From Planctomycetota bacterium (GTDB taxonomy: Bacteria > Planctomycetota > PUPC01 > DSUN01): DNA of 13,928 nt. Position 1 is the first letter of the stretch. Every line of letters starts with the position of its first letter. The notes beneath the pieces were generated by a model that was given only the letters and a program-made list of their open reading frames with translations, was not told where the DNA came from and did no database searches. Shown here one piece after another: positions 1-13,800 of the stretch. The position numbers and the translations under genes were made by a program. The stretch is taken from positions 1-13,928 of the forward strand of contig VGYW01000219.1 of NCBI GenBank assembly GCA_016872875.1, in the 5' to 3' direction.

Positions 1-345
1 CGTAGAGCCCCCGAAGCGGGGCGATTCAATGGGCGTGAAACGCCCCCTTCGGGGGCTTGGATGGGGGGGACGCGCCATCCCAGGGCTCCCTTCGGTCGCC
101 CTGGGCTACGGCTGGGTCGCCCGCGTCGGCGGGCTACAAGGCCCCGAGATGTGGGCAAAGATCAGGGCGAAGCCCTGGGAGACGCGGGCGGCAAGATTCA
201 GCCCTGTAGGGGCGTACTACCCACCCTGGGCAGGACGCGGCGCCCGGAACCACATAGCACGCCCTTTCAGGGCCGACCTACCTACCGCCCCGTTCCCAGG
301 GCTTCGCCCTGGGCTGTTATAGTACGCCCCTGTCGGGGCTCCGGA
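1..345. repeat. Intergenic field of palindromic repeats, no gene
   Basis: No credible gene is seen here; the open frames have no ribosome binding site and run through palindromes. Visible units are a hairpin pair at 5-55 (GAGCCCCCGAAGCGGGG, then CGCCCCCTTCGGGGGC), a two-hairpin repeat at 79-137, a hairpin CAGGGCGAAGCCCTGGG at 163-179, its reverse complement inside CCCAGGGCTTCGCCCTGGG at 295-313, and an inverted pair AGCCCTGTAGGGGCGTACT (200-218) and AGTACGCCCCTGTCGGGGCT (321-340). Block 5-137 is matched by 4102-4234 with nearly identical spacing, so this is a dispersed repeat family and not unique sequence. Confidence 0.75.
79..137 (+). repeat. Two-hairpin dispersed repeat, copy 1
   Basis: First hairpin: CCCAGGGC and GCCCTGGG around an 11-nt loop. 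A linker CTACGGCTGGGTC follows, then a second hairpin GCCCGC-GTCG-GCGGGC and a terminal TAC. Copies 2 (4026-4083, minus) and 3 (4177-4234, plus) keep the same architecture with different bases in the second stem. Confidence 0.8.
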
Positions 346-390
346 GTAGTTCACCAGAGCTGGGGGCCATACTCAACGCACTGACCGCTA

Positions 391-419
391 TTGACATCGG
401 GCGCGCGATAGTGTACATT
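391..419 (+). promoter_or_regulatory. Sigma70-type promoter of the Phd-PIN toxin-antitoxin operon
   Basis: TTGACA at 391-396, a 17-bp spacer, and TACATT at 414-419, placed 48 bp before the antitoxin start. The 9-mer GCGCGCGAT occurs at 401-409 (in the spacer) and 423-431 (around the expected start site), 22 bp apart, about two helical turns. Phd/YefM antitoxins autorepress by binding such repeated sites, so these are operator candidates by inference. Confidence 0.6.
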
Positions 420-466
420 GTTGCGCGCGATTGAGGATTCAAGAAGGGGCCAAAGGAGTCAACGCC

Positions 467-772
467 ATGAGGTTCATGACCCTTCGGGACCTACGCACGA
501 AGACCTCCGCGCTCCGCAGGGACCTGGTTTCGGAGAGGGAGATGATCGTCACGGCCAACGGAAGGCCGTTCGCCGCGATCGTCCCCATCAGCCCGGATGC
601 ACTTGAGGAAGAGGTCCGCGCGCTCCGCCTCGCGCGTTTCGGGGTGCTCGTTGATCGCATCCAGGCCAGGTCGAAGGCGATGGGGTTCGAGAAGACGAGC
701 ATGAAGGAGATAGACGCCGTGATCGCCCGGGTGCGGCGCGAGAGGAGACGGCGCGACAGGGCCGCGCAATGA
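467..772 (+). CDS. Type II toxin-antitoxin antitoxin, Phd/YefM family
   Basis: A 101-residue protein, the usual size for Phd/YefM antitoxins, which bind their own promoter through the N-terminal half and neutralise the toxin with the C-terminal half. The N-terminal part shows the family pattern: a start strand and helix (MRFMTLRDLRTKTSALRRDL), then VTANGRPFAAIVPI, the strand-turn-strand typical of the fold. The C-terminal part is a charged helix rich in Arg and Lys, the expected toxin-binding tail. The ATG at 467 is chosen because AAAGGAG lies at 452-458, 8 nt upstream; an in-frame TTG at 431 has no such site and would sit in the operator region. It overlaps the PIN toxin start by ATGA (769-772), so the two are translationally coupled. 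Family assignment is by sequence pattern. Confidence 0.85.
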   Translation: MRFMTLRDLRTKTSALRRDLVSEREMIVTANGRPFAAIVPISPDALEEEVRALRLARFGVLVDRIQARSKAMGFEKTSMKEIDAVIARVRRERRRRDRAAQ

Positions 773-1176
773 GGGTAGCCCTCGACACAAATGTGCTCGT
801 GTCGGGCCTTCTGACCCCTGGCGGAACATGCGCGCAGATCCTGCGACTAGTGCGCACTCGCGTGCTGACCTGCTGTGTAGATGCGCGAATGCTCATGGAG
901 TACGACGAGGTCCTGCATGGGCTCGACCCGCCGGTCGTGCCAGCAGAGGCGGATGAGCTTTGCCACATCGTGCGGGACGTCGCGTTGATGGTTGAGCCGC
1001 CGCCTCTCGCCACGCGCCTGCCTCACCGCGACGATCTTCCCTTCCTCGAAGTCGCCAAGGCATCTGATGCCATCCTGGTGACTGGCAACAGGCGGCATTT
1101 CCCAAAGAAGCCGTGCGTTGGGGCGACGGTCATGTCGCCGAGGGAACTGCTCGACTACTTGCGCCGCCCGCTCTGA
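769..1176 (+). CDS. PIN-domain toxin of a type II toxin-antitoxin pair
   Basis: A 135-residue PIN-domain protein of the 'putative toxin component, PIN family' type (COG1569-like), expected to be a Mg2+-dependent ribonuclease held in check by the antitoxin at 467-772. Acidic active-site candidates are D6 in ALDTNVLVSG, E44 or E47 in MEYDEVL, and D88/D89 in HRDDLPFLEVA. The C-terminal TGNRRHFP carries Asn where many PIN proteins have a fourth Asp; this variant is, from memory, common in the COG1569 group and need not mean loss of activity. The start codon lies inside the antitoxin stop (ATGA), the classic coupled arrangement. The length is normal, with no frameshift. Confidence 0.88.
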   Translation: MRVALDTNVLVSGLLTPGGTCAQILRLVRTRVLTCCVDARMLMEYDEVLHGLDPPVVPAEADELCHIVRDVALMVEPPPLATRLPHRDDLPFLEVAKASDAILVTGNRRHFPKKPCVGATVMSPRELLDYLRRPL

Positions 1177-1217
1177 GACCCGGGGGTGCCATTCATGGCG
1201 AGAGGATGCAACGGCCT

Positions 1218-2534
1218 ATGGATGCGCCTTCGCTGAAGGAACGGCTGGAGTGGTTTCAGGACCTCAAGTTCGGCTTCTTCATGCACTGGGGGCCATACAG
1301 CCAGTGGGGCTGCATCGAGAGCTGGCCGCTGGTGCCGGCCGACGCCTGGGCACGGCCCGATGGCCTCAAGCCCTGGGCCGAACGGGACAAGGACATCGCA
1401 CGCTTCCAGCGCGACTACTTCGCACTCAATCGCACGTTCGACCCCACGAGGTTCGACCCCGCGAAGTGGGCCGCCGAGGCCAAGGGCGCTGGCTTCAAGT
1501 ATGTCTGCTTCACGACCAAGCACCACGACGGCTTTTCGATGTTCGACACGCGGCAGACCGACTACCGCGTGACCGGCCCCGACTGCCCGTTCAGCAGGCA
1601 GCCGCGGGCGAACGTGGCGAAGGAGGTGTTCGACGCCTTCCGCGCCCAGGGCTTCGCCATCGCCGCCTATTTCTCGAAGTCGGACTGGCACTGCCCCTGG
1701 TACTGGTGCCGCGACTTCCCGGTCCGCGACCGCAACCCCAACTACGACACTGCCCAGCACCCCGAGCTCTGGGCGAAGTTCCAGCAGTTCGTCTACGCCC
1801 AGATCGAGGAGCTGATGACCGGCTACGGGAAGATAGACATCCTGTGGCTCGACGGGGGCCAGGTGAGGCCCCCGAGCCAGGACATCAATATGCCCCGCAT
1901 CGCAGCGATGGCGAGGCGGCATCAGCCAGGCCTCATCATCGTGGACCGCACGGTCGGCGGCGACTTCGAGGATTATCGCACCCCCGAACAGGAGGTGCCC
2001 GATGCCCCGCCCGGCTTCGTCTGGGAATCCTGCCTCACGATGGGCGACCAGTGGTCCTACAAGCCCAACGACCGCTACAAGAGCACCCGCCAGCTCATCC
2101 ATCTGCTGGTGGACATAGTGTCGAAGGGCGGGAACCTGCTCCTGAACGTCGGCCCGCAGCCCGACGGCGAGCTGCCCGCCGAGGCGGTGGCCCGTATGCG
2201 CGAGATGGGCGAATGGCTCGCGGTCAACGGCGAGGCCATCTATGGCTCGCGCGCCATCGCCCCCTACAAGGAGGGCCGCGTCTGCTACACCCGCAAGGGC
2301 GACAGCGCCTACGCCATCGCCCTCGCCGACGAAGGCCAGGACACCCCGCCTGCCACGCTCACCCTCTCCTCGCTCCAGCCCGCCGCGAACTCACGCGTCC
2401 ACATGCTCGGCGTTTCCGAGCCGCTCGCCTGGCGGCCAAGCGGCGGCGGAGCGATCATTGACATCCCGGCCGCCATCGCCTCCAGTCCCCCCTGCCGCCA
2501 CGCCTTGGCCCTGAAGCTTCGAGTCGCCACGTAA
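1218..2534 (+). CDS. Alpha-L-fucosidase, glycoside hydrolase family 29
   Basis: About 438 residues, hydrolysing terminal alpha-L-fucose from glycans with retention. The (beta/alpha)8 barrel begins almost at once: LKFGFFMHWGPYSQWG is the family's N-terminal strand with the substrate-contacting His-Trp pair; FDPAKWAAEAKGAGFKYV and TTKHHDGFSMF follow. ILWLDGG supplies the probable nucleophile Asp (about residue 212), and GGNLLLNVGPQPDG closes the barrel before a smaller beta domain. No signal peptide is visible, so it is either cytoplasmic or exported by another route. Start choice is open: ATG 1218 lies 12 nt after GAGAGG (1200-1205), while ATG 1206 (442 aa) directly abuts that motif; a longer start at 1113 would overlap the PIN gene and is rejected. 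Only 41 nt separate it from the toxin stop. It has no transporter or other sugar gene nearby. Confidence 0.93.
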   Translation: MDAPSLKERLEWFQDLKFGFFMHWGPYSQWGCIESWPLVPADAWARPDGLKPWAERDKDIARFQRDYFALNRTFDPTRFDPAKWAAEAKGAGFKYVCFTTKHHDGFSMFDTRQTDYRVTGPDCPFSRQPRANVAKEVFDAFRAQGFAIAAYFSKSDWHCPWYWCRDFPVRDRNPNYDTAQHPELWAKFQQFVYAQIEELMTGYGKIDILWLDGGQVRPPSQDINMPRIAAMARRHQPGLIIVDRTVGGDFEDYRTPEQEVPDAPPGFVWESCLTMGDQWSYKPNDRYKSTRQLIHLLVDIVSKGGNLLLNVGPQPDGELPAEAVARMREMGEWLAVNGEAIYGSRAIAPYKEGRVCYTRKGDSAYAIALADEGQDTPPATLTLSSLQPAANSRVHMLGVSEPLAWRPSGGGAIIDIPAAIASSPPCRHALALKLRVAT

Positions 2535-2541
2535 CCGGCGC

Positions 2542-2569
2542 TTGAGAAACCTCGCGCGCGTGGTATGAT
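2542..2569 (+). promoter_or_regulatory. Promoter of the aspartic protease gene
   Basis: TTGAGA at 2542-2547, a 16-bp spacer and TATGAT at 2564-2569. Transcription would begin near 2576, giving a leader of about 70 nt and arguing against translation from the ATG at 2570, which overlaps the -10 box. Confidence 0.55.
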
Positions 2570-2644
2570 ATGGGTATGAAGAAGCTGGCTGCTCGTTCGC
2601 CGATTGAGTGGAAGCTGCCGGCAAGGCGGCCGAGGAGAGCGCGC

Positions 2645-3007
2645 ATGGGAATGACACACGTCACGGTGACCGTCCGGAACCCCGCGAACCCGCGCAAGTC
2701 GTGGGACGGCCTGTTCCTCGTTGACACGGGAGCGTACGACTCCATGGCCCCGGCGAAGCATCTCAAGAAGATTGGCCTCACCCCGGTAGGGGAGAGGACC
2801 TATGAGTTGGCCGACGGCAAAGAGGTGAAGATGAAGACGGCCGTCGCACAAGTGGAGTTCATGGGGGACATCGTGGGCACCACGATCGCCTTTGGCCCCG
2901 ACGACGCTGAGCCCATCCTCGGCGTCACCGCCCTGGAGTCTGTTGGCATCGAGGTTGACCCCCGAACCCAACGCCTCAAACGCCTCCCCGCCGTCCGGCT
3001 GAAGTGA
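2645..3007 (+). CDS. Single-domain retroviral-type (clan AA) aspartic protease
   Basis: A 120-residue protein. FLVDTGAYDSM carries the catalytic D-T-G triad (Asp near residue 27), and the C-terminal half has PILGVTALESVGIEVDP, the hydrophobic-hydrophobic-Gly motif that supports the active site in retropepsin-like folds. One D-T-G per chain implies an active homodimer, as in retroviral proteases. The ATG at 2645 is preferred because GAGGAG lies at 2632-2637, 7 nt upstream; the in-frame ATG at 2570 would begin inside the promoter and add 25 residues of basic low-conservation sequence. No signal peptide is present. Related bacterial proteins are mostly of unknown substrate, so the physiological role is not known. 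Confidence 0.82.
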   Translation: MGMTHVTVTVRNPANPRKSWDGLFLVDTGAYDSMAPAKHLKKIGLTPVGERTYELADGKEVKMKTAVAQVEFMGDIVGTTIAFGPDDAEPILGVTALESVGIEVDPRTQRLKRLPAVRLK

Positions 3008-3133
3008 CCTGCGAGACGTCCGCCCAGAGCCCTGTTGTTGCACATGGTGTGGGGGCTCGGCAACGATGCCCCGGGGCGGCCGTGCGAGCACGCCCTTGCA
3101 GTGCGGTTCGAGCTCCCGTGGCGGTCTCCGGGC

Positions 3134-3162
3134 TTGCGGGCGGACCGTTCATCTGCTATGAT
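3134..3162 (+). promoter_or_regulatory. Promoter of a long leader before the lipoprotein gene
   Basis: TTGCGG at 3134-3139, a 17-bp spacer and TATGAT at 3157-3162. A start near 3169 would give a leader of about 290 nt before the lipoprotein ATG at 3461. The early leader holds an inverted repeat CGCGCGGAC (3181-3189) and GTCCGCGCG (3211-3219). The rest of 3008-3460 shows no recognised gene. Confidence 0.45.
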
Positions 3163-3241
3163 GCCCACGTGAGGAAGCCGCGCGCGGACGTTCCGAGAAG
3201 CCGCGGCGTTGTCCGCGCGGGTTGACCAAGGAGAGTGGGGC

Positions 3242-3382
3242 ATGCAGCCGGCGCCGCTTGGACCACGAGGAAGCCAGTGCGGCCCGCCCGCTCGAGGGCG
3301 GGAAGGAGCGCCCCCTGCTGCCTGCGGCACCGGCGCACTGGATGCCAGGGGGCCGCCGCACCTTCAGCCGCTACGTGAGTGA
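3242..3382 (+). CDS. Possible 46-residue leader ORF, unrecognised
   Basis: A short frame starting at ATG 3242 with a very good ribosome binding site (AAGGAG at 3228-3233, 8 nt upstream) and ending at TGA 3380-3382. It lies between the promoter near 3157 and the lipoprotein gene, so it could be a leader peptide or a chance frame. The translation (MQPAPLGPRGSQCGPPARG and onward) is Pro/Gly/Ala-rich, resembles no family I know and has no signal peptide. The only support is the ribosome binding site and position; in such GC-rich DNA chance frames are frequent. An overlapping frame from 3222 exists in another phase and has no ribosome binding site. Confidence 0.25.
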   Translation: MQPAPLGPRGSQCGPPARGREGAPPAACGTGALDARGPPHLQPLRE

Positions 3383-3460
3383 ACGGCGGGCCGCCGCTGG
3401 CCCTGGCAGCGGGGGCGAACCTGGGCTCGACACAATCACTTCCGTTCGGGAGAGCGTATC

Positions 3461-3889
3461 ATGTCGATGAAAGCGGCGAGTGTTCTGGTCGGCGTCGCGT
3501 TGGTCGCCCTGGCGGGGTGCACGACTCACTACAGCACGGCCCCCGGGACGGGGGTGCCCATGGCGCCGCTGACCACGACGGCGACCTATGACGTGCTGGG
3601 CGATGCGACCGGCACGGCGACGGCGGGCTACCTGTTCTACTTCATCCCGCTACAGGCCGAGCGGAAGGTCGGCGCGATTGGCGGCGTCGGCCTCCTCCAG
3701 CAGCTCCAGGGCGGCGGCCTGCCGGCCACGGTGAACGCCGCCCTCTACCAGGCGATCGAGGCGCAGCCGGGCGCCGACGCCATCCTGTCGCCGCGGTGGC
3801 GCATGGTCTCGAAGAACTACATCATCTACCGCGAGGACACCGCGACGGTGAAAGGGAAGGCTGTCCGGTACAATCCGAACGTCAAGTGA
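3461..3889 (+). CDS. Small outer-membrane-type lipoprotein, unknown function
   Basis: A 142-residue protein with a clear lipoprotein signal: basic start, hydrophobic stretch VLVGVALVALAG and the lipobox LAGC with the lipidated Cys at residue 20. The mature part begins with a Thr/Ser/Pro-rich linker, then YDVLGDATGTATAGYLFYFIPL, a region with ALYQAIEAQPGADAIL, and ends NYIIYREDTATVKGKAVRY. That pattern (glycine-rich middle, 'AL..A....GADAI' and a terminal strand ending in G.A....) recalls short bacterial lipoproteins of the TRL-like type, but I would not name the family firmly. GGGAGAG at 3448-3454 precedes ATG 3461 by 6 nt; ATG 3467 is an alternative start. It is probably transcribed from the promoter near 3157. 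Confidence 0.8.
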   Translation: MSMKAASVLVGVALVALAGCTTHYSTAPGTGVPMAPLTTTATYDVLGDATGTATAGYLFYFIPLQAERKVGAIGGVGLLQQLQGGGLPATVNAALYQAIEAQPGADAILSPRWRMVSKNYIIYREDTATVKGKAVRYNPNVK

Positions 3890-3916
3890 GCCTTAGCGGC
3901 CACGGGCCGCGGGCTC
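3888..3916 (+). terminator. Hairpin directly after the lipoprotein stop
   Basis: GAGCC-TTA-GCGGCC-ACG-GGCCGC-G-GGCTC folds into a two-part stem (5 and 6 bp with small internal loops) starting at the stop codon. No T-run follows, so it may be a weak or factor-assisted terminator or only an mRNA 3'-end stabiliser. Confidence 0.35.
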
Positions 3917-3941
3917 GGACTGGGCGTTGAGGCGCCGCCTG

Positions 3942-3979
3942 GCCGCCTGCCGCGCGGCACGGCCCGTGCGGCAGGCGGC
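3942..3979. repeat. Perfect 12-bp inverted repeat in the 3890-4272 gap
   Basis: GCCGCCTGCCGC (3942-3953) is exactly mirrored by GCGGCAGGCGGC (3968-3979) around a 14-nt loop. It could extinguish transcription arriving from the lipoprotein gene or be a mobile palindrome. The 3890-4272 gap contains this hairpin and two inverted repeat copies, and no gene. Confidence 0.6.
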
Positions 3980-4025
3980 GACGGTGGCGCGAGCTATTGG
4001 CCTCTGCGAAGGTAATGTGCGCCCT

Positions 4026-4083
4026 GTAGCCCCCGACGGGGGCGACCCAGCCGTAGCCCAGGGCGACCGTAGGGAGCCCTGGG
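4026..4083 (-). repeat. Two-hairpin dispersed repeat, copy 2 (inverted)
   Basis: Read on the minus strand: CCCAGGGC, an 11-nt loop (TCCCTACGGTC), GCCCTGGG, then CTACGGCTGGGTC and a second hairpin GCCCCC-GTC-GGGGGC followed by TAC. It lies head to head with copy 3, which starts less than 100 bp away. Confidence 0.8.
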
Positions 4084-4101
4084 TAGGCCGGCCCAACGTG
4101 G

Positions 4102-4234
4102 GAGCCCCCGAACGGGGGCGATTCAGACGGCCACGAGTCGCCCCCTACGGGGGTTCATGCACCGGCGGCGTGGTTCCCCAGGGCTCCCTGCGGTCGCCCT
4201 GGGCTACGACTGGCTCGCCCACTTCGTGGGCTAC
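4102..4234 (+). repeat. 133-bp composite palindromic repeat, containing two-hairpin copy 3
   Basis: The left half has GAGCCCCCGAACGGGGGCG followed by ATTCA and CGCCCCCTACGGGGG; the right half (4177-4234) is two-hairpin copy 3, with CCCAGGGC-TCCCTGCGGTC-GCCCTGGG and second stem GCCCAC-TTC-GTGGGC. The whole block aligns with 5-137, with 75 versus 74 bp between the two halves' starts. It ends 26 bp before the ribosome binding site of the caspase-like gene, so it lies in that gene's upstream region. Confidence 0.75.
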
Positions 4235-4272
4235 GAACAAGAGCGCCAGTGGTCAATAGAGGAGGAGCGCGC

Positions 4273-5958
4273 ATGGCATCACGGAGCAGGTGCTCGACGT
4301 GGCTCTGGCGCCGCGTGGCGCTGGGCGCAGCGCTCGCCAGCGGCGCCCTGCTGGCGGGCTGCGGGACCGTCGTCTCGGAAGTCTACCGCCAAGGGGCCAT
4401 CCAGAACGCCTACCAGCCCCAGGTGAGCCGGAGCGCCCAATCGCCCGCGCGCGGCCTCACACTGGCCGTTCCGCCCCTCGCCGAGTCGCGCCGCGGCAAG
4501 CGCGAGCAGCACACCCTCTGGAAGTGCTTCGTGCCGGTCCTCAGCGCGCAGGCGTACTGGGAGCAGCCCGACTGGTTGGCCTGGGAGGGCCTGGTCTACG
4601 AGCAGTACAAGCCGGCGGGCCGGGACCTGGCGGAGGTCCTCGCCGGCGAACTCGCGCGCTCCGGCCTCTTCGCAAAGGTCGAGGGCCAGGCGCGCCCGGG
4701 GGCGGCTGACCTCGTCCTGGAGGGGGACGTGCGCGACCTCACCCTCATCCAGCGCCCGCACCTCCTGGGCACGTCGGTCTTCATCGGGCCGCTCCTCGGC
4801 CTGCTCGGCCTGCCCCTGGGCTCCTGGGAGGCCACGCAGACCCTCGAGCTCCGCCTCGTCGAGGCCGCCAGCCGCAGGGTCGTATGCGAGCGCGTATTCC
4901 AGACTCGCGACGACGGGGTGGTGGCGGCCTACTATGGCCGTGACCCGCACCGGTGCGGCTACCCGGCGGAGGCGCTGCTCCGCCCGGTGGTCGCGGCGTT
5001 CGTGGGCGACGTGGAGAAGGCCCTCGCCGAGAAGGGCGAGGGCCATTGGGCCGCCATCGCGGCGGCGCGCGGCCTGCCGCCCGCGGCCCCGCCTGAGCCG
5101 GAGCGTCCAGTCGTTGTTCCCACCCCCCCCGTCGCCCGGCCGCCCACGGCTCTGCGCGGCCAGCACTGGGCCATCGTCATCGGCGTGTCGGCCTACCGCG
5201 ACCCGCGGGTGCCGCCCCTGCGCTACGCGGCGAGCGACGCCCGCGCGTTTTACGACTGGCTGGTGGACCCGAAGGGCGGGCGCTATGCGCCCGACCACGT
5301 GAAGCTGCTGCTCGACAAGGAGGCGACGGGTGCGCAGCTCCGCGAGGCGCTCTTCACCTGGAGCCGCCAGGCCATCGCCGAGGACCTGCTCGTCATCTAC
5401 TATGCCGGCCACGGCTCCCCGGAATCGCCGGCCAGCAAGGACAACCTCTTCCTCCTCCCCTACGACACCGACTACGAGAAGATCGCGGCGACCGGCTTCC
5501 CGATGTGGGACATCGAGACGGCGCTCCGGCGCTTCGTGCGTGCGGGCCAGATCGTGATCGTCACCGACGCCTGCCACGCAGGCGGCGTGGGCGCCGAGTT
5601 CGCCAACCTGGGCGTCCGCGACATCAAGGTCGTGATCAACCAGCTCAACGAGGGGCTTCAGCGCCTCACCAAGGCGGCCAGCGGCGTCGCGGTCCTCACC
5701 GCCAGCGGCGCCGACCAGCTCTCCCAGGAAGGCCAGCAATGGGGCGGCGGCCGCGGCGTCTTCACCCACTTCCTCCTCAGGGGCCTCCAGGGCGAGGCCG
5801 ACTACAACAAGGACGGCGCTGTGACCCTTGGGGAGCTCTGCCCCTACGTCTCCGAGCAGGTGCGGCGGGCGACGCGCAACGCGCAGAGCCCGGAGGTGTC
5901 CGGCAAGTTCGACCCCGCCCTTCCCATCGGCGGCGCGCCCGCCCGCGGCACCCCGTAG
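4273..5958 (+). CDS. Lipoprotein with C-terminal caspase-like (peptidase C14) domain
   Basis: A 561-residue envelope protein. The basic start and hydrophobic run ALGAALASGALLAG end in lipobox LAGC (Cys30). Residues about 50-260 form an unassigned domain with LVLEGDVRDLTLIQRP and a hydrophobic stretch near GPLLGLLGLPLG, in the style of trafficking-type lipoproteins. A proline-rich linker follows near 270-292. From about 297 the caspase fold starts: HWAIVIGVSAYRDPRVPPL, DLLVIYYAGHGS with catalytic His380, and IVIVTDACHAGG with catalytic Cys434, so the His-Cys dyad is intact. YNKDGAVTLGELCPYV resembles the EF-hand-like or late segment seen in bacterial caspase proteins. GGAGGAG at 4261-4267 is 5 nt before ATG 4273; an in-frame start at 4249 lacks a site. 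Such domains cleave after basic or acidic residues; substrate here is unknown. It is probably attached to a membrane and facing the periplasm. Confidence 0.88.
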   Translation: MASRSRCSTWLWRRVALGAALASGALLAGCGTVVSEVYRQGAIQNAYQPQVSRSAQSPARGLTLAVPPLAESRRGKREQHTLWKCFVPVLSAQAYWEQPDWLAWEGLVYEQYKPAGRDLAEVLAGELARSGLFAKVEGQARPGAADLVLEGDVRDLTLIQRPHLLGTSVFIGPLLGLLGLPLGSWEATQTLELRLVEAASRRVVCERVFQTRDDGVVAAYYGRDPHRCGYPAEALLRPVVAAFVGDVEKALAEKGEGHWAAIAAARGLPPAAPPEPERPVVVPTPPVARPPTALRGQHWAIVIGVSAYRDPRVPPLRYAASDARAFYDWLVDPKGGRYAPDHVKLLLDKEATGAQLREALFTWSRQAIAEDLLVIYYAGHGSPESPASKDNLFLLPYDTDYEKIAATGFPMWDIETALRRFVRAGQIVIVTDACHAGGVGAEFANLGVRDIKVVINQLNEGLQRLTKAASGVAVLTASGADQLSQEGQQWGGGRGVFTHFLLRGLQGEADYNKDGAVTLGELCPYVSEQVRRATRNAQSPEVSGKFDPALPIGGAPARGTP

Positions 5959-7042: not shown

Positions 7043-7074
7043 CCGCTCGCAGGGCAGCTCGCGTGTACGCCGGC

Positions 7075-7173
7075 GGGGGATGAATGGATGAGTGGATGGG
7101 TGGATGGGTGGATGGATGTCAGAGGGATCGACTCTTTCATTCATCCATTCATCCAAACATCCATTCATCCCCC
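7075..7173. repeat. TGGA/TCCA minisatellite arranged as a large inverted repeat
   Basis: GGGGGATGAATGGATG (7075-7090) is mirrored exactly by CATCCATTCATCCCCC (7158-7173), 16 bp. The left arm continues as TGGATGGG-type 4-bp repeats, the right as ATCC-type repeats, so further pairing is possible around a non-repetitive centre (GTCAGAGGGATCGACTC). It lies between the PPIase stop (7042) and the ribosome binding site of the next gene (7186-7190), where it could act as a transcript hairpin. Confidence 0.85.
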
Positions 7174-7198
7174 TTCGTCGCGGCCGGAGGCCCTGTCA

Positions 7199-8706: not shown

Positions 8707-8811
8707 TTCGTAGTGCGGCCTTCAGGCCGTGGCTTTCTCCCCGCGCTTGCGGGGGAGGACGCGGGGCACTGAGGCCCCGCCCACAGGACGGGCTGAAGCC
8801 CGCACTACGAA
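8707..8811. repeat. 105-bp palindromic element with 12-bp terminal inverted repeats
   Basis: Ends TTCGTAGTGCGG (8707-8718) and CCGCACTACGAA (8800-8811) are perfect inverted repeats. Inside each end is a small hairpin, CGGCCTTCAGGCCG left and CGGGCTGAAGCCCG right, differing by paired changes. In the middle are CCCCGC-GCTT-GCGGGG (8739-8754) and GCGGGGC-ACTGAG-GCCCCGC (8761-8780). No gene lies in 8553-8882; besides this element that gap holds the sigma-factor promoter and a region with no visible signal. The element resembles REP- or MITE-like dispersed palindromes; no transposase is linked. Confidence 0.75.
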
Positions 8812-9635: not shown

Positions 9636-10249
9636 AGGGGACTTGAGGCATGGAGCAAGATCCTACGTTTGGGCTTGACCCAGAGCGGCTGGCCCGGCTG
9701 TTGGCCATCGGGGCAGGGGCCACGGGCGGCGACGACGCGGAAGGCACCCAGCCGACTCAGGAGCTCGCCTGCCCGAAGTGCGGGACGAAGGTGCCGCTCC
9801 CCGCGCTCCGCGGCGCGGAGACCGTCGCAGCCCCGGCCACCCTTGCCGGTTCCGACGACGACCCCAAGCTGACGCTGAGCCTGCCAGGTGCGGGCGACCC
9901 CACGCGAAGCCGTGATGGGGCAGAGACCGAGCTGTCGGTGGAGGACGCCCTTCGCTCCGCGGGGCCGGGCGCGGGCCGCTACGTCGAGCAGGCCGCCATC
10001 GGCAAGGGCGGCATGGGCGAGGTCGTCCTCTGCGTTGACCGCGACATTCGCCGCCCCGTGGCCATGAAGCGCATGCTCCCCGCCACCGCCGCCGACCCCG
10101 CCCGCCGAGCGCGCTTCGTCGAAGAAGCACAGGTCACCGGACAGCTCGAGCACCCCAACATCGTGCCCATCTACGAGCTCACGAGGCAGCCTGATGGGAC
10201 GGTTTATTACACGATGAAGCTGGTCAAGGGGCGCTCGCTGGCGGATATC

Positions 10250-10367
10250 ATCAGGGACATCAGGGACCAAAGGGACGAAAGGGCCACATCCCGTGCCGCG
10301 TCCCGCGTGCCGCGTGCCCAGGAAGAGGCGGATATTGGTTTGGGTTCTGGGGACGCGGGACGCAACC
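10250..10367 (+). repeat. Insertion 1 in the kinase: 9-bp minisatellite plus palindrome
   Basis: Four 9-bp units ATCAGGGAC, ATCAGGGAC, CAAAGGGAC, GAAAGGGCC (10250-10285) are followed by GC-rich repeats with TGCCGCGT twice (10294-10301, 10308-10315) and an 11-bp inverted repeat GCGTCCCGCGT (10298-10308) and ACGCGGGACGC (10353-10363). It lies where related kinases have a variable loop between the N-lobe and ...SLGDLLQVF, and shifts the frame by +1. Exact borders cannot be fixed from this sequence alone. Confidence 0.65.
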
Positions 10368-10540
10368 GCTTTCTCCCTCGGCGACCTGCTCCAAGTGTTT
10401 CTCAAAGTCTGCGACGGCGTCGCCTTCGCCCACTCGCGCGGCGTGGTCCACCGCGACCTCAAGCCCGCGAACATCATGGTCGGCGACTTCGGCGAAGTGC
10501 TGGTCATGGACTGGGGTTTGGCCAAGATCATTCGGGCTGG

Positions 10541-10676
10541 GGACGTGGGCGGGGCCTCCGCGCCCCGCGAGGCTGTTGTGGGCGGCGTGTCCCCACGCCG
10601 CGGGACGCGGGACGGGGACGTCCCGCCCACAATTCCCCCCGAGCCGAGCGGGGCAGTGACGCCCCGCCTACAACAA
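10541..10676 (+). repeat. Insertion 2 in the kinase: palindromic repeat cluster
   Basis: Contains GCGGGGC-CTCCGC-GCCCCGC (10549-10568), an inverted pair TTGTGGGCGG (10576-10585) and CCGCCCACAA (10623-10632), and GCGGGGC-AGTGAC-GCCCCGC (10648-10667). The third-frame reading opens after a TGA in the loop of the last hairpin (10657-10659). It separates the DWG segment from GTPAYMSPE, in the activation-segment linker, and shifts the frame by +1. The same 7-bp stem with a 6-nt loop occurs in the element at 8761-8780. Confidence 0.65.
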
Positions 10677-10758
10677 TCTGGTCACGCGTCAGGAACCCGC
10701 TCCACAGATTGCCACAGACCGCCAGGAAATCACCGCCCTCCAAACCCTCGCCGGCTCC

Positions 10759-12600
10759 ATGCTCGGCACGCCAGCCTACATGTCGCCCGAGCAGGCCAGG
10801 GGCGAACTCGACAACATTGACGCCCGCTCCGACATCTGGTCGCTGGGCGCAATCCTCTATGAGATTCTCACGCTTGAGCGCGCCTTCGCGGGGGAGACCA
10901 CCTATGCCATTCTCGCGGGGGTGCTCAAAGGCAACATCGTCCCGCCCGAGCAGCGTGCCCCGAACCGCAACGTGCCCCGCGAACTCTCCGCCATCGTCAT
11001 GAAATGCCTCAACCGCACCCGCAGCCGTCGCTACGCGAGCGCGCTCGACCTCAAGCGCGACGTGGCCTTGTTCCTTGAGGGCCGCAGCGTCTCGGCCGCG
11101 CCCGACTCTTTTTCCCAGGCATTCGTGAAGCTCATCAAGCGCAACAAAGCTGTCAGCGCGGCCATAGCCGTCGCCCTATCCGTCCTATCGGTCCTATCCG
11201 TCCTATTCATGCTCCGCCTCGCCCGCGAGCGCGACCGCGCCGTTGCGAGCGAGGGCCGAGCCATCACCAACGAGAAGGCAGCCGTCGCAGCCCGCGACGC
11301 GCAGCGCGCCACCGCCCTCTCTGCCTCGAAGCGCCAGGCCGAAAGCGCCGTCCGAGCCGCAAGCGAAGGTCGCCTTGACGAAGCCAAGGTCCGAGCCGAC
11401 GCCGCGGTCGAGGTCATGCCCGACGGCCCCTGGGGCCACTACGCCCTGGGCGTCCTCGCCCACGAGAAGAAGGACTTCGCCTCCGCCCGCAAGCACCTCG
11501 ACGAGGCCCTTCGCCTCGACCCTGCCCACGGCCCCTCCAAGCTCCTCCACACCACCGTCCTCGCCGCCTCCGGCGACCTAGCCAAGTGGGAGCAACTCGC
11601 CTCCGAGGCCGACAAGTGCACCCACTGGAGGGCCCTCGTGGCCGCGGGGGATGCCCTCTATGCCAGTGATCGATTCGCGCACGCCGCCAGATCCTACCAG
11701 CGTGCGGTTCACCTATGCGAGGCGGACCCGGCCATCCCAGCCCCCACCAAGGAGGCATTCAAGGACAAGCTCGTGAAGGCGAATGGTCGCCTCAGGATGG
11801 CGGGCTTCTACGAGTCAATTCGCAAACTCCCCTTGGATGAGCAGCAGGAACGCCTTGCTGCGAGAATCAATGAGGCCTACCAAGGTGGGGTGATCTACTA
11901 CAGCAACGGGGTGGTCATTGAGAAGGGCGGCAGATTCAGGATATCCCTTGGTTACGCAGGGAGCAAAGCGAGGTGGCTCGATCCCCTGCGCGGTTTGCCC
12001 ATCACTGAGCTGAGTATCGAGTCCACGGGGGTTGAGGATCTATGCCCCGTCAGAGGCATGCCGCTCACGCAGCTGAATTGTGGAGGGACCCGAGTCAAAG
12101 ACCTCAGCCCCTTGCGGGGCATGCGTCTTGAGCATCTGGATGTCGCCTCAACCGGCGTTACAGACCTCAGCCCCCTGGCAGGAATGCCGCTGGTCTTGCT
12201 GCGCTGTCATGCGAACCTGAGGCTGTGCGATCTCTCGCCGCTTAAGGGCATGCCGTTGAGGTCACTTACCGTGAGTAACACCAGTGTTCTTGACCTTGCG
12301 CCGTTGCAGGGCATGCCTTTAGAGGAAATGCACTGCATCGAGACAAGCCTGGAGGATCTCTCCCCACTGAGGGGCATGCCCCTAGCCGTCCTCAGCGTCT
12401 TCTCCACCCGCGTTAGTGATCTCACCCCTCTTGAGGGGATGAAACTCCGTCAGCTTGGCTTCACGCCCAAGAACATCAAGAAGGGGATTGAGGTTGTCCG
12501 CGCCATGAAGTCACTTGCCATTGTCACTGTTGATCGCGGCAAGAACTTAACGGCGAGCGATTTCTGGAGAAGGTATGACGCGGGGGAGTTCAGCAAGTAG
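10759..12600 (+). CDS. C-terminal kinase fragment: C-lobe end, transmembrane helix, TPR-like region, leucine-rich repeats
   Basis: An open frame of 613 residues from ATG 10759, which is an internal Met of the kinase ([13 protein letters not shown]), not a natural start; no ribosome binding site precedes it. Order: activation-segment end and C-lobe (1 to about 115), transmembrane helix [20 protein letters not shown], charged coiled region with [22 protein letters not shown]-like helices ([20 protein letters not shown]), then leucine-rich repeats in 21-residue units of the form MPL-x2-L-x5-T-x-V-x-DLSPL-x-G at 12058, 12121, 12184, 12250, 12313, 12376 and 12439. It would be the sensor part, outside the membrane if the kinase is inside. 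If expressed alone it lacks ATP-binding and catalytic loops. Confidence 0.55.
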
Positions 12601-12603
12601 GGC

Positions 12604-12760
12604 GGGGGCGGCCAGTGGACGGTGGACAGTAGACAGTAGGCAGTCGGCAGGAGGCAGGAGGCAGTGGGCAGACGGCAGGGGACACACGGCAGGGGGAGAG
12701 AAGACAGGTGTTCGGTGACCGGTTTTCGGTTTTCGGGGTAAGAGGTTCGCGTGATTCGCG
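12604..12760 (+). repeat. GGCAG/GGACAG-type minisatellite, left copy
   Basis: Short degenerate units (AGTGGACGGTGGACAGTAG, CAGTAGGCAGTCGGCAGG, CAGGAGGCAGTGGGCAGACG) of 7-8 bp, then GAGAGAAGACAGGTGTTC and GGTTTTCGGTTTTCGGGG. Shares exact 17-mer CAGTCGGCAGGAGGCAG (12641-12657) and 21-bp stretch 12661-12681 with the right copy, in the same orientation. Confidence 0.75.
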
Positions 12761-13638: not shown

Positions 13639-13800
13639 GCCAGTCGGCAGGAGGCAGCCGGCAGACGGCAGAGAAGAGGGAAAAGCCGGCAGGAGGCAGT
13701 AGGCAGTGGGCAGACGGCAGGGGGCGGAGGACAGTGGACAGAGGGCAGGGGAAGAGAAGGCAGGTGTTGGGTGGTAGGTGTTGGGGGTCGGGGGTGGGAC
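13639..13800 (+). repeat. GGCAG/GGACAG-type minisatellite, right copy
   Basis: Same style and orientation as 12604-12760: CAGTCGGCAGGAGGCAG at 13641-13657 and the 21-bp match at 13703-13723 are identical to the left copy, followed by GAGAAGGCAGGTGTTGGG-type units. The two copies bracket the MNT-HepT pair and the remnant. Confidence 0.75.

What the first reader, a model, noticed from the sequence alone, without database searches (positions are those of the whole stretch)
79..4234. Two-hairpin repeat with pairing-preserving changes in three copies
Copies at 79-137 (+), 4026-4083 (-) and 4177-4234 (+) share CCCAGGGC...GCCCTGGG, a fixed linker and a second hairpin. The second stem reads GCCCGC/GCGGGC, GCCCCC/GGGGGC and GCCCAC/GTGGGC: at one position three different Watson-Crick pairs (G-C, C-G, A-T). 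Three copies are few, but this is what selection on a folded DNA or RNA structure would leave. No transposase is linked, so it may be a REP-like family moved in trans or a structured RNA element.
Basis: seen in the sequence. Interest (0 to 1): 0.72.

Follow-up and report, generated by a model that had tools for sequence, protein, structure and literature searches.

The report
Gene-less hairpin transposons of Planctomycetes
The repeated double hairpins are the ends of small mobile DNA elements that probably borrow a single-strand-cutting transposase from full-length cousins, and the same kind of ends has been catalogued for years as a small RNA.

Summary
Confirmed: three two-hairpin repeats at the stated places. 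They are not stand-alone: 4023-4237 is one 215-bp mirror-image element with six hairpins, and 79-137 is part of another, cut by the window edge. One sister genome (a Planctomycetota MAG) gives 125 matches; 76 distinct copies keep the variable pair every time (GC 30, CG 29, AU 15, GU 2, none broken). There the same repeats flank two transposase genes: the element with a gene in its middle. The enzyme is a Y1 HUH transposase of the IS200-like 'subclass 1.2', not a RAYT; the 2018 survey that defined it called it generally without terminal hairpins. Its four sister genes carry Rfam's 'Acido-Lenti-1 sRNA' at their ends (one below threshold). Over 294 Planctomycetota genomes that 'RNA' and the enzyme co-occur (61 both, 16 and 6 single, 211 neither); it flanks the enzyme gene in 20 of 59 genomes, mostly mirrored, against 1 of 30 RAYT-type control loci. 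A Bacteroidota plasmid shows the same layout with and without the gene. Best reading: non-autonomous, hairpin-ended ssDNA transposons mobilised in trans by subclass 1.2 transposases, with Acido-Lenti-1 as such an end. Mobility itself was not shown.

The parts
4023..4237 (.). complete 215-bp six-hairpin, gene-less element (MITE-like), lying between the genes at 3461-3889 and 4273-5958
   Evidence: one of 32 elements of 211-225 bp found in the fetched loci and the window; model matches at both ends
4026..4083 (+). left end in REP orientation: GTAG 4026-4029, small hairpin A 4029-4043, linker, GTAG 4053-4056, large hairpin 4057-4083
   Evidence: 83.5 bits
4104..4119 (+). inner small hairpin B
4120..4140 (.). 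centre; the transposase gene occupies the matching place in L046 and L047
4141..4153 (-). inner small hairpin B' (mirror of B)
4177..4234 (-). right end, mirror copy: large hairpin 4177-4203, CTAC (GTAG on the minus strand), small hairpin A' 4217-4231
   Evidence: 86.1 bits
79..137 (-). right end of a second element whose left end would lie beyond the window start
   Evidence: 83.7 bits
7..56 (.). inner hairpins B (7-22) and B' (42-56) of that second element
295..340 (+). Rfam RF01687 Acido-Lenti-1 match: a cousin end of the other subfamily
   Evidence: 39.4 bits, gathering 37

Best explanation
The repeats are the ends of small non-autonomous transposable elements. Each element is a mirror image: outer small hairpin, a TAG-footed large hairpin, inner small hairpin, short centre, and the same in reverse. 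Full-length relatives have the same ends with one gene in the centre, a Y1 HUH transposase of subclass 1.2 (IS200-like). Inferred mechanism: when the DNA is single-stranded the enzyme binds the hairpins, uses TAG at the hairpin foot as recognition or guide sequence, cuts with its tyrosine, and moves the gene-less elements in trans. Selection for that recognition keeps the stems paired. Shown: architecture, copy number, covariation, shared ends of gene-bearing and gene-less copies, enzyme-repeat pairing, co-occurrence. Inferred: binding, cutting, movement.
For: Copy number: 125 model matches in one genome. Pairing: 98.6% of 1216 cells paired against 94.4% in shuffles, 0 of 500 as high; the variable pair GC 30, CG 29, AU 15, GU 2, broken 0 of 76; 21 parsimony changes of that pair on a tree built without it. 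Same ends with gene: L046 and L047. Cognate pairing in G001: model matches above 50 bits lie beside the two C54 genes (10) and not beside the other four, where the model gives 24-32 bits at three and none at C21; RF01687 at gathering score lies beside C4, C21 and C552, under it at C43 (33.9 bits), and not at C54. Enzyme type: NF033573 over cut-off in 3 of 3 tested, NF047646 absent or 23 of 80 bits; HUH in 59 of 59 and Y-x3-Q-x2-HH in 57 of 59 further loci. Co-occurrence 61/16/6/211 of 294 genomes, p about 1e-40, uncorrected for kinship. Outward TAG-foot hairpins at 34 of 59 loci against 3 of 28 RAYT-type controls; outer against inner foot 60 against 6 of 176 hairpins, controls 4 against 0 of 54. 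RF01687 at 20 of 59 loci, 38 of 42 matches mirrored, against 1 of 30 controls, 1047 bp off. Second phylum: Persicobacter plasmid with gene-bearing and gene-less copies.
Against: No movement, excision or empty site was seen; no pair of strains was available. 25 of 59 subclass 1.2 loci lack a perfect TAG-foot hairpin of 7 bp or more, and a divergent group (such as L168, L176, L178, L180) lacks the layout. 16 genomes have RF01687 without the enzyme at the threshold used, and 6 the reverse. The Bernardetia relative (L156) shows no such ends within 220 bp. In covariation the number of pairs with two-sided changes (2) is not beyond shuffles (119 of 500): the signal rests mainly on one pair. In the sister genome the enzymes are six and mostly divergent (45-49% to the first, one 91%), as with domesticated enzymes rather than a spreading IS.
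Confidence: 0.86

Rival explanations
1. Classical REP/BIME moved by a RAYT (class 2 TnpA_REP).
For: GTAG at the hairpin foot, inverted pairs and high copy number are REP traits (PMC3733652, abstract and passages). RAYT-like proteins exist in the sister genome (three tested match NF047646 at 59-79 bits, under its 80-bit cut-off).
Against: The flanking genes are not RAYTs. RAYT-type control loci have TAG-foot hairpins at 3 of 28 and RF01687 at 1 of 30, 1047 bp off; the 13 RAYT-type or other Y1 loci of the sister genome have neither repeat.
Confidence: 0.06
2. A structured RNA: sRNA, terminator-like or mRNA-stabilising hairpins, as Rfam files RF01687.
For: Strong RNA folds, C(UNCG)G in the large loop of all three window copies, position between genes; Rfam types the cousin as sRNA.
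Against: Copies come as mirrored pairs on both sides of the transposase gene, so on one side the 'RNA' would be read from the opposite strand (38 of 42 matches mirrored). Presence tracks the enzyme. Some copies may still be transcribed and act secondarily.
Confidence: 0.05
3. Paired changes come from quasi-palindrome repair or gene conversion between arms and copies, not from selection on the fold.
For: Template switching in hairpins can rewrite one arm from the other (recalled); copies are close relatives, so changes are shared.
Against: It does not explain the conserved TAG foot, constant linker, fixed layout and cognate gene. It may add to selection.
Confidence: 0.03

Closest known systems
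REP/BIME with TnpA_REP (RAYT), 'REPtron'
   Same: GTAG/TAG at hairpin foot, inverted pairs, many dispersed copies, gene flanked by the same repeats, HUH tyrosine enzyme
   Different: enzyme is IS200-like subclass 1.2; unit is a fixed six-hairpin element of about 215 bp with its own inner hairpins, laid out as the gene-bearing element minus the gene
IS200/IS605 insertion sequences and their gene-less PATEs (Haloquadratum, PMC3119063, passages)
   Same: Y1 HUH enzyme of the same class, subterminal hairpins, gene-less derivatives moved in trans
   Different: ends here are mirror-symmetric with three hairpins a side; PATEs are described as having no terminal inverted repeats
Rfam RF01687 Acido-Lenti-1 (PMC2864571, table passage)
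   Same: 8-bp hairpin, CUA, linker, 5- to 6-bp hairpin; found at the ends of sister genes
   Different: window copies score 17.7-18.4 bits, under the 37-bit gathering score; longer loop with an inner CC/GG pair
TnpA_Y1 subclass 1.2 (PMC6006769, sections 17 and 18 and passages)
   Same: Y---Q--HH motif, DH[IV]H, WQ, about 150 aa, IS200-like
   Different: [quoted passage not shown] here it has such ends and is common in Planctomycetota

Membership tests
GTAG-type REP with RAYT | palindrome with unpaired GTAG at one end | tested here: met
   TAG at the large hairpin foot in 76 of 76 copies, the G in at least 90% (the search pattern favoured this, with up to 4 mismatches)
GTAG-type REP with RAYT | many dispersed copies | tested here: met
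   125 matches
GTAG-type REP with RAYT | linked class 2 transposase (NF047646) | tested here: not met
   the two C54 proteins match NF033573 only
TnpA_Y1 subclass 1.2 | HUH and Y---Q--HH motifs, IS200-like | tested here: met
   6 of 6 in G001, 57 of 59 elsewhere, NF033573 over cut-off in 3 of 3 tested; the paper's own profiles were not available
IS200/IS605 insertion sequence | hairpins near both sides of the gene | tested here: met
IS200/IS605 insertion sequence | defined cleavage sites, no target duplication, mobility | not tested
   no empty sites available
MITE/PATE (gene-less derivative) | short, no gene, ends shared with a gene-bearing element | tested here: met
   window 4023-4237 against L046/L047; L205-L208 against L204
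Rfam RF01687 | gathering score 37 bits | tested here: not met
   three window copies 17.7-18.4 bits; 295-340 reaches 39.4 and does belong
functional RNA | transcription as a defined RNA | not testable with these tools
   no expression data

The most novel reading that the evidence does not exclude
Subclass 1.2 Y1 transposases as a whole, across several phyla, run a mobile-element system of their own: mirror-symmetric six-hairpin ssDNA transposons and swarms of gene-less copies. The symmetry would let either DNA strand serve as substrate. Acido-Lenti-1, and perhaps other hairpin 'sRNA' families, are their DNA ends rather than RNAs.
Probability: 0.55. Interest if true: 0.82.

Novelty: new variant of a known kind. 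Interest (0 to 1): 0.72.

Why it matters
It joins two orphans. Subclass 1.2 transposases were described as generally lacking the hairpin ends of their class, and Acido-Lenti-1 was published in 2010 as a probable RNA without known function. If right, a curated RNA family needs reclassifying, about a quarter of sampled Planctomycetota genomes carry the system (67 of 294 the enzyme; 77 of 294 RF01687), and there is a testable HUH system between IS200 and REPtrons with ends, enzyme and substrates already paired.

Tried and rejected
RAYT as the mover: rejected after and the controls. Membership of the window copies in RF01687: rejected on score. Window's own genome: not held. Contigs C160-C166 of G001 were looked at because their lengths bracket 13928; none has that length, and window 1200-2560 matches G001 at best at 77% over 468 of 1361 bases, so I take the window for another record, probably of a close relative. 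Viral contigs: 68 stretches matched a pattern, none encodes a relative. A second plasmid search added no new record. Literature; papers PMC13298647, PMC10059132, PMC7682815 and PMC4853749 were seen in the listing only. Mirror symmetry of the flanks alone was dropped as evidence because RAYT-type controls show it too (27 of 29 against 16 of 29). Other Rfam matches at 7071-7178 are weak microRNA matches in a simple repeat, under their gathering scores.

Rows dropped: 14 of 90 doublets were identical to others. Control L149 was dropped for a short flank and L153, of unknown strand. Two of 13 Y1 loci of G001 (L052, L054) had short flanks. Seven of the 66 other enzyme-bearing genomes (G089, G108, G132, G180, G210, G239, G258) are not among the 59 loci because their rows were not listed. 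Of the 30 RAYT-type controls 26 are over the NF047646 cut-off and 4 (L150-L153) under it. Among the 32 elements L024 (first), L032 and L042 are copies of one sequence. Caps: searches scored 150 candidates of 2749 and 15855, so their counts are lower bounds; one search used stricter filters and 20 candidates per genome. Flanks scanned with Rfam were up to 1500 bp for L096-L154 and up to 500 bp for L157-L186.

Full report
1. The observation. A simple GTAG-stem pattern occurs twice in the window against 0.05 expected. Both strands fold. Read on the opposite strand, each hairpin is preceded by GTAG: GTAG-small hairpin-linker-GTAG-large hairpin.

2. What the unit is. The copies at 4026 and 4177 are not two repeats but two ends of one 215-bp mirror-image element, 4023-4237, with two further hairpins inside (4104-4119 and 4141-4153). 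The copy at 79-137, with hairpins at 7-22 and 42-56, is the right part of a second element cut by the window edge. I found 32 such elements of 211-225 bp in the fetched loci and the window. Ten predicted genes of the window were scanned with Pfam; none is a transposase.

3. Where else. An exact-pattern scan of the collection of 84,980 species gave 43 stretches, all in one Planctomycetota MAG, VGYV01, here G001. A covariance model built from 76 distinct copies matches 125 places in it, 3 in G146, and none in 38 other relatives. The window is not part of that MAG as held, though its repeats are very close to those in it.

4. Covariation. In the 76 copies 98.6% of 1216 cells are paired (94.4% in shuffles, 0 of 500 as high). 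Sliding the partner by one column drops pairing to 49-63%. The number of pairs with two-sided change (2) is not beyond shuffles (119 of 500), so the signal rests mainly on one pair. That pair type changes 21 times on a tree made without it (a short alignment, so a rough number). Its columns were not part of the search pattern; the GTAG foot was, with mismatches allowed.

5. The gene. Y1_Tnp (PF01797) has 19 matches in the MAG, 17 over the cut-off. Six form a group of their own (91% between the two on contig C54, 45-49% for the rest against the first). The two C54 genes are flanked by the window's repeat: seven copies round one, three round the other. In them the gene stands where gene-less elements have their short centre. 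The other four genes (C4, C21, C43, C552) have Rfam RF01687 Acido-Lenti-1 beside them (C43 under the gathering score, at 33.9 bits), on C21 six copies in a row about 66 bp apart. RF01687 is not found beside the C54 genes, and the window-repeat model gives only 24-32 bits beside C4, C43 and C552. The 13 other Y1 loci have neither. So each repeat subfamily keeps to its own enzymes.

6. The kind of enzyme. NCBIfam calls three of three tested IS200/IS605 (NF033573, over cut-off); the RAYT model NF047646 is absent or at 23 of 80 bits. Three other Y1 proteins of the MAG match the RAYT model instead, at 59, 79 and 79 bits, all under its 80-bit cut-off. The significant PDB sequence matches are chains named transposase (2xm3, 2xma, 2xo6, 2fyx), the first three being ISDra2 as I recall. 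The tyrosine motif is Y-x3-Q-x2-HH, the mark of TnpA_Y1 subclass 1.2 (PMC6006769: sections 17 and 18 and passages). That paper says the subclass is generally without terminal IS200 secondary structures and lists its REP as 'no'.

7. Test across the phylum. In 294 Planctomycetota genomes RF01687 is found in 77 and the enzyme (alignment A1, E at most 1e-15) in 67: 61 both, 16 RF01687 only, 6 enzyme only, 211 neither, Fisher p about 1e-40, kinship not corrected. I took the best enzyme locus of 59 of the 66 other genomes (29 loci, 30). RF01687 at gathering score lies at 20 of 59 (6 of 20, 11 of 20, 3 of 19), on both sides at 11 of those 20, and 38 of 42 matches point the mirrored way. Thirty RAYT-type loci of 29 of these genomes, with flanks up to 1500 bp, have 1, at 1047 bp. 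Hairpins of 7 bp or more with TAG at the outer foot stand at 34 of 59 loci, 23 on both sides, against 3 of 28 RAYT-type loci; of 176 hairpins 60 have TAG at the outer foot and 6 at the inner, of 54 in controls 4 and 0. In the first 29 loci an earlier script gave 18 of 29 against 4 of 29. Of the six enzyme-only genomes four are among the 59 (L176, L178, L180, L185); all four lack TAG-foot hairpins, which fits.

8. Another phylum. The closest plasmid relative, on a Persicobacter (Bacteroidota) plasmid, has the same layout: small hairpin, TTAG, 8-bp hairpin, small hairpin, gene, and the mirror image. Its upstream module recurs in the record (18 matches). Four copies printed are gene-less; L205 spans 216 bp from outer hairpin to outer hairpin against 661 bp for the gene-bearing L204; the window's element spans 203 bp by the same measure (4029-4231). 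The Bernardetia relative shows no such ends.

9. Mechanism. Known for the class (recalled, and PMC8266576 passages): HUH Y1 enzymes bind hairpins in single-stranded DNA, cut near the foot and rejoin; for E. coli TnpA_REP, substrates with changed GTAG gave no product. By analogy the TAG foot of the large hairpin is the recognition or guide sequence here; before the outermost hairpin only AG is well kept, so the inner GTAG is the likelier one. The mirror layout would give each strand the same substrate. This is inference; nothing here shows cutting or movement.

10. Comparison. It works like a REPtron and like IS200 with its PATEs (PMC3119063, passages). It is not a RAYT REPtron by the enzyme test. 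It differs from canonical IS200 by symmetric multi-hairpin ends. I call it a new variant of a known kind. That RF01687 has not been linked to a transposase in print rests in the held library only, with several papers seen as listings; Weinberg 2010 (PMC2864571, table passage) rates it 'y' (probably RNA), not cis-regulatory. PMC3733652 (abstract, passages and section 16) reports GTAG REPs and RAYTs, including Planctomycetes, and REP-free TIR-flanked genes.

11. Weak points. No expression data, no strain pairs, relatedness uncorrected, 25 of 59 loci without a perfect TAG-foot hairpin, and 16 genomes with RF01687 but no enzyme at the threshold used.

Noticed in passing
window 9650-12600: A Ser/Thr kinase gene is split over two frames (Pfam Pkinase positions 1-98 and 158-253); the region 10545-10672 between holds GC-rich hairpin repeats related to one at 8757-8785 (D10, I9, I24, I25), as if another repeat family had inserted in the gene.
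   Followed up: partly
window 163-340: A hairpin CAGGGCGAAGCCCTG near 164-178 and the Acido-Lenti-1 match at 295-340 lie right beside the element end at 137, suggesting nested or adjacent insertion of two subfamilies.
   Followed up: no
L001, L015, L024, L035, L041 around the elements; window 138-163: A subset of elements shares longer inverted flanks reading like ATCTTTGCCCACATCT, perhaps a palindromic target or a longer element form.
   Followed up: no
L048:1902-2275: Six Acido-Lenti-1 copies in tandem, about 66 bp apart, beside the transposase gene: BIME-like local expansion.
   Followed up: no
L178, L180, L185, L186: Some subclass 1.2 loci have small hairpins followed by TTTGTAG, without the large TAG-foot hairpin; may be a second type of end.
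   Followed up: no
L125-L154 and L050-L062: RAYT-type loci of the same genomes often have mirrored flanks without TAG-foot hairpins (mirror beyond shuffles in 16 of 29 and 8 of 11), like the published TIRYT type.
   Followed up: no
window 12600-12709 and 13642-13765: Two clusters of a repeat with 14-base spacing (GGCAGTAGGCAGTGG type, D1).
   Followed up: no
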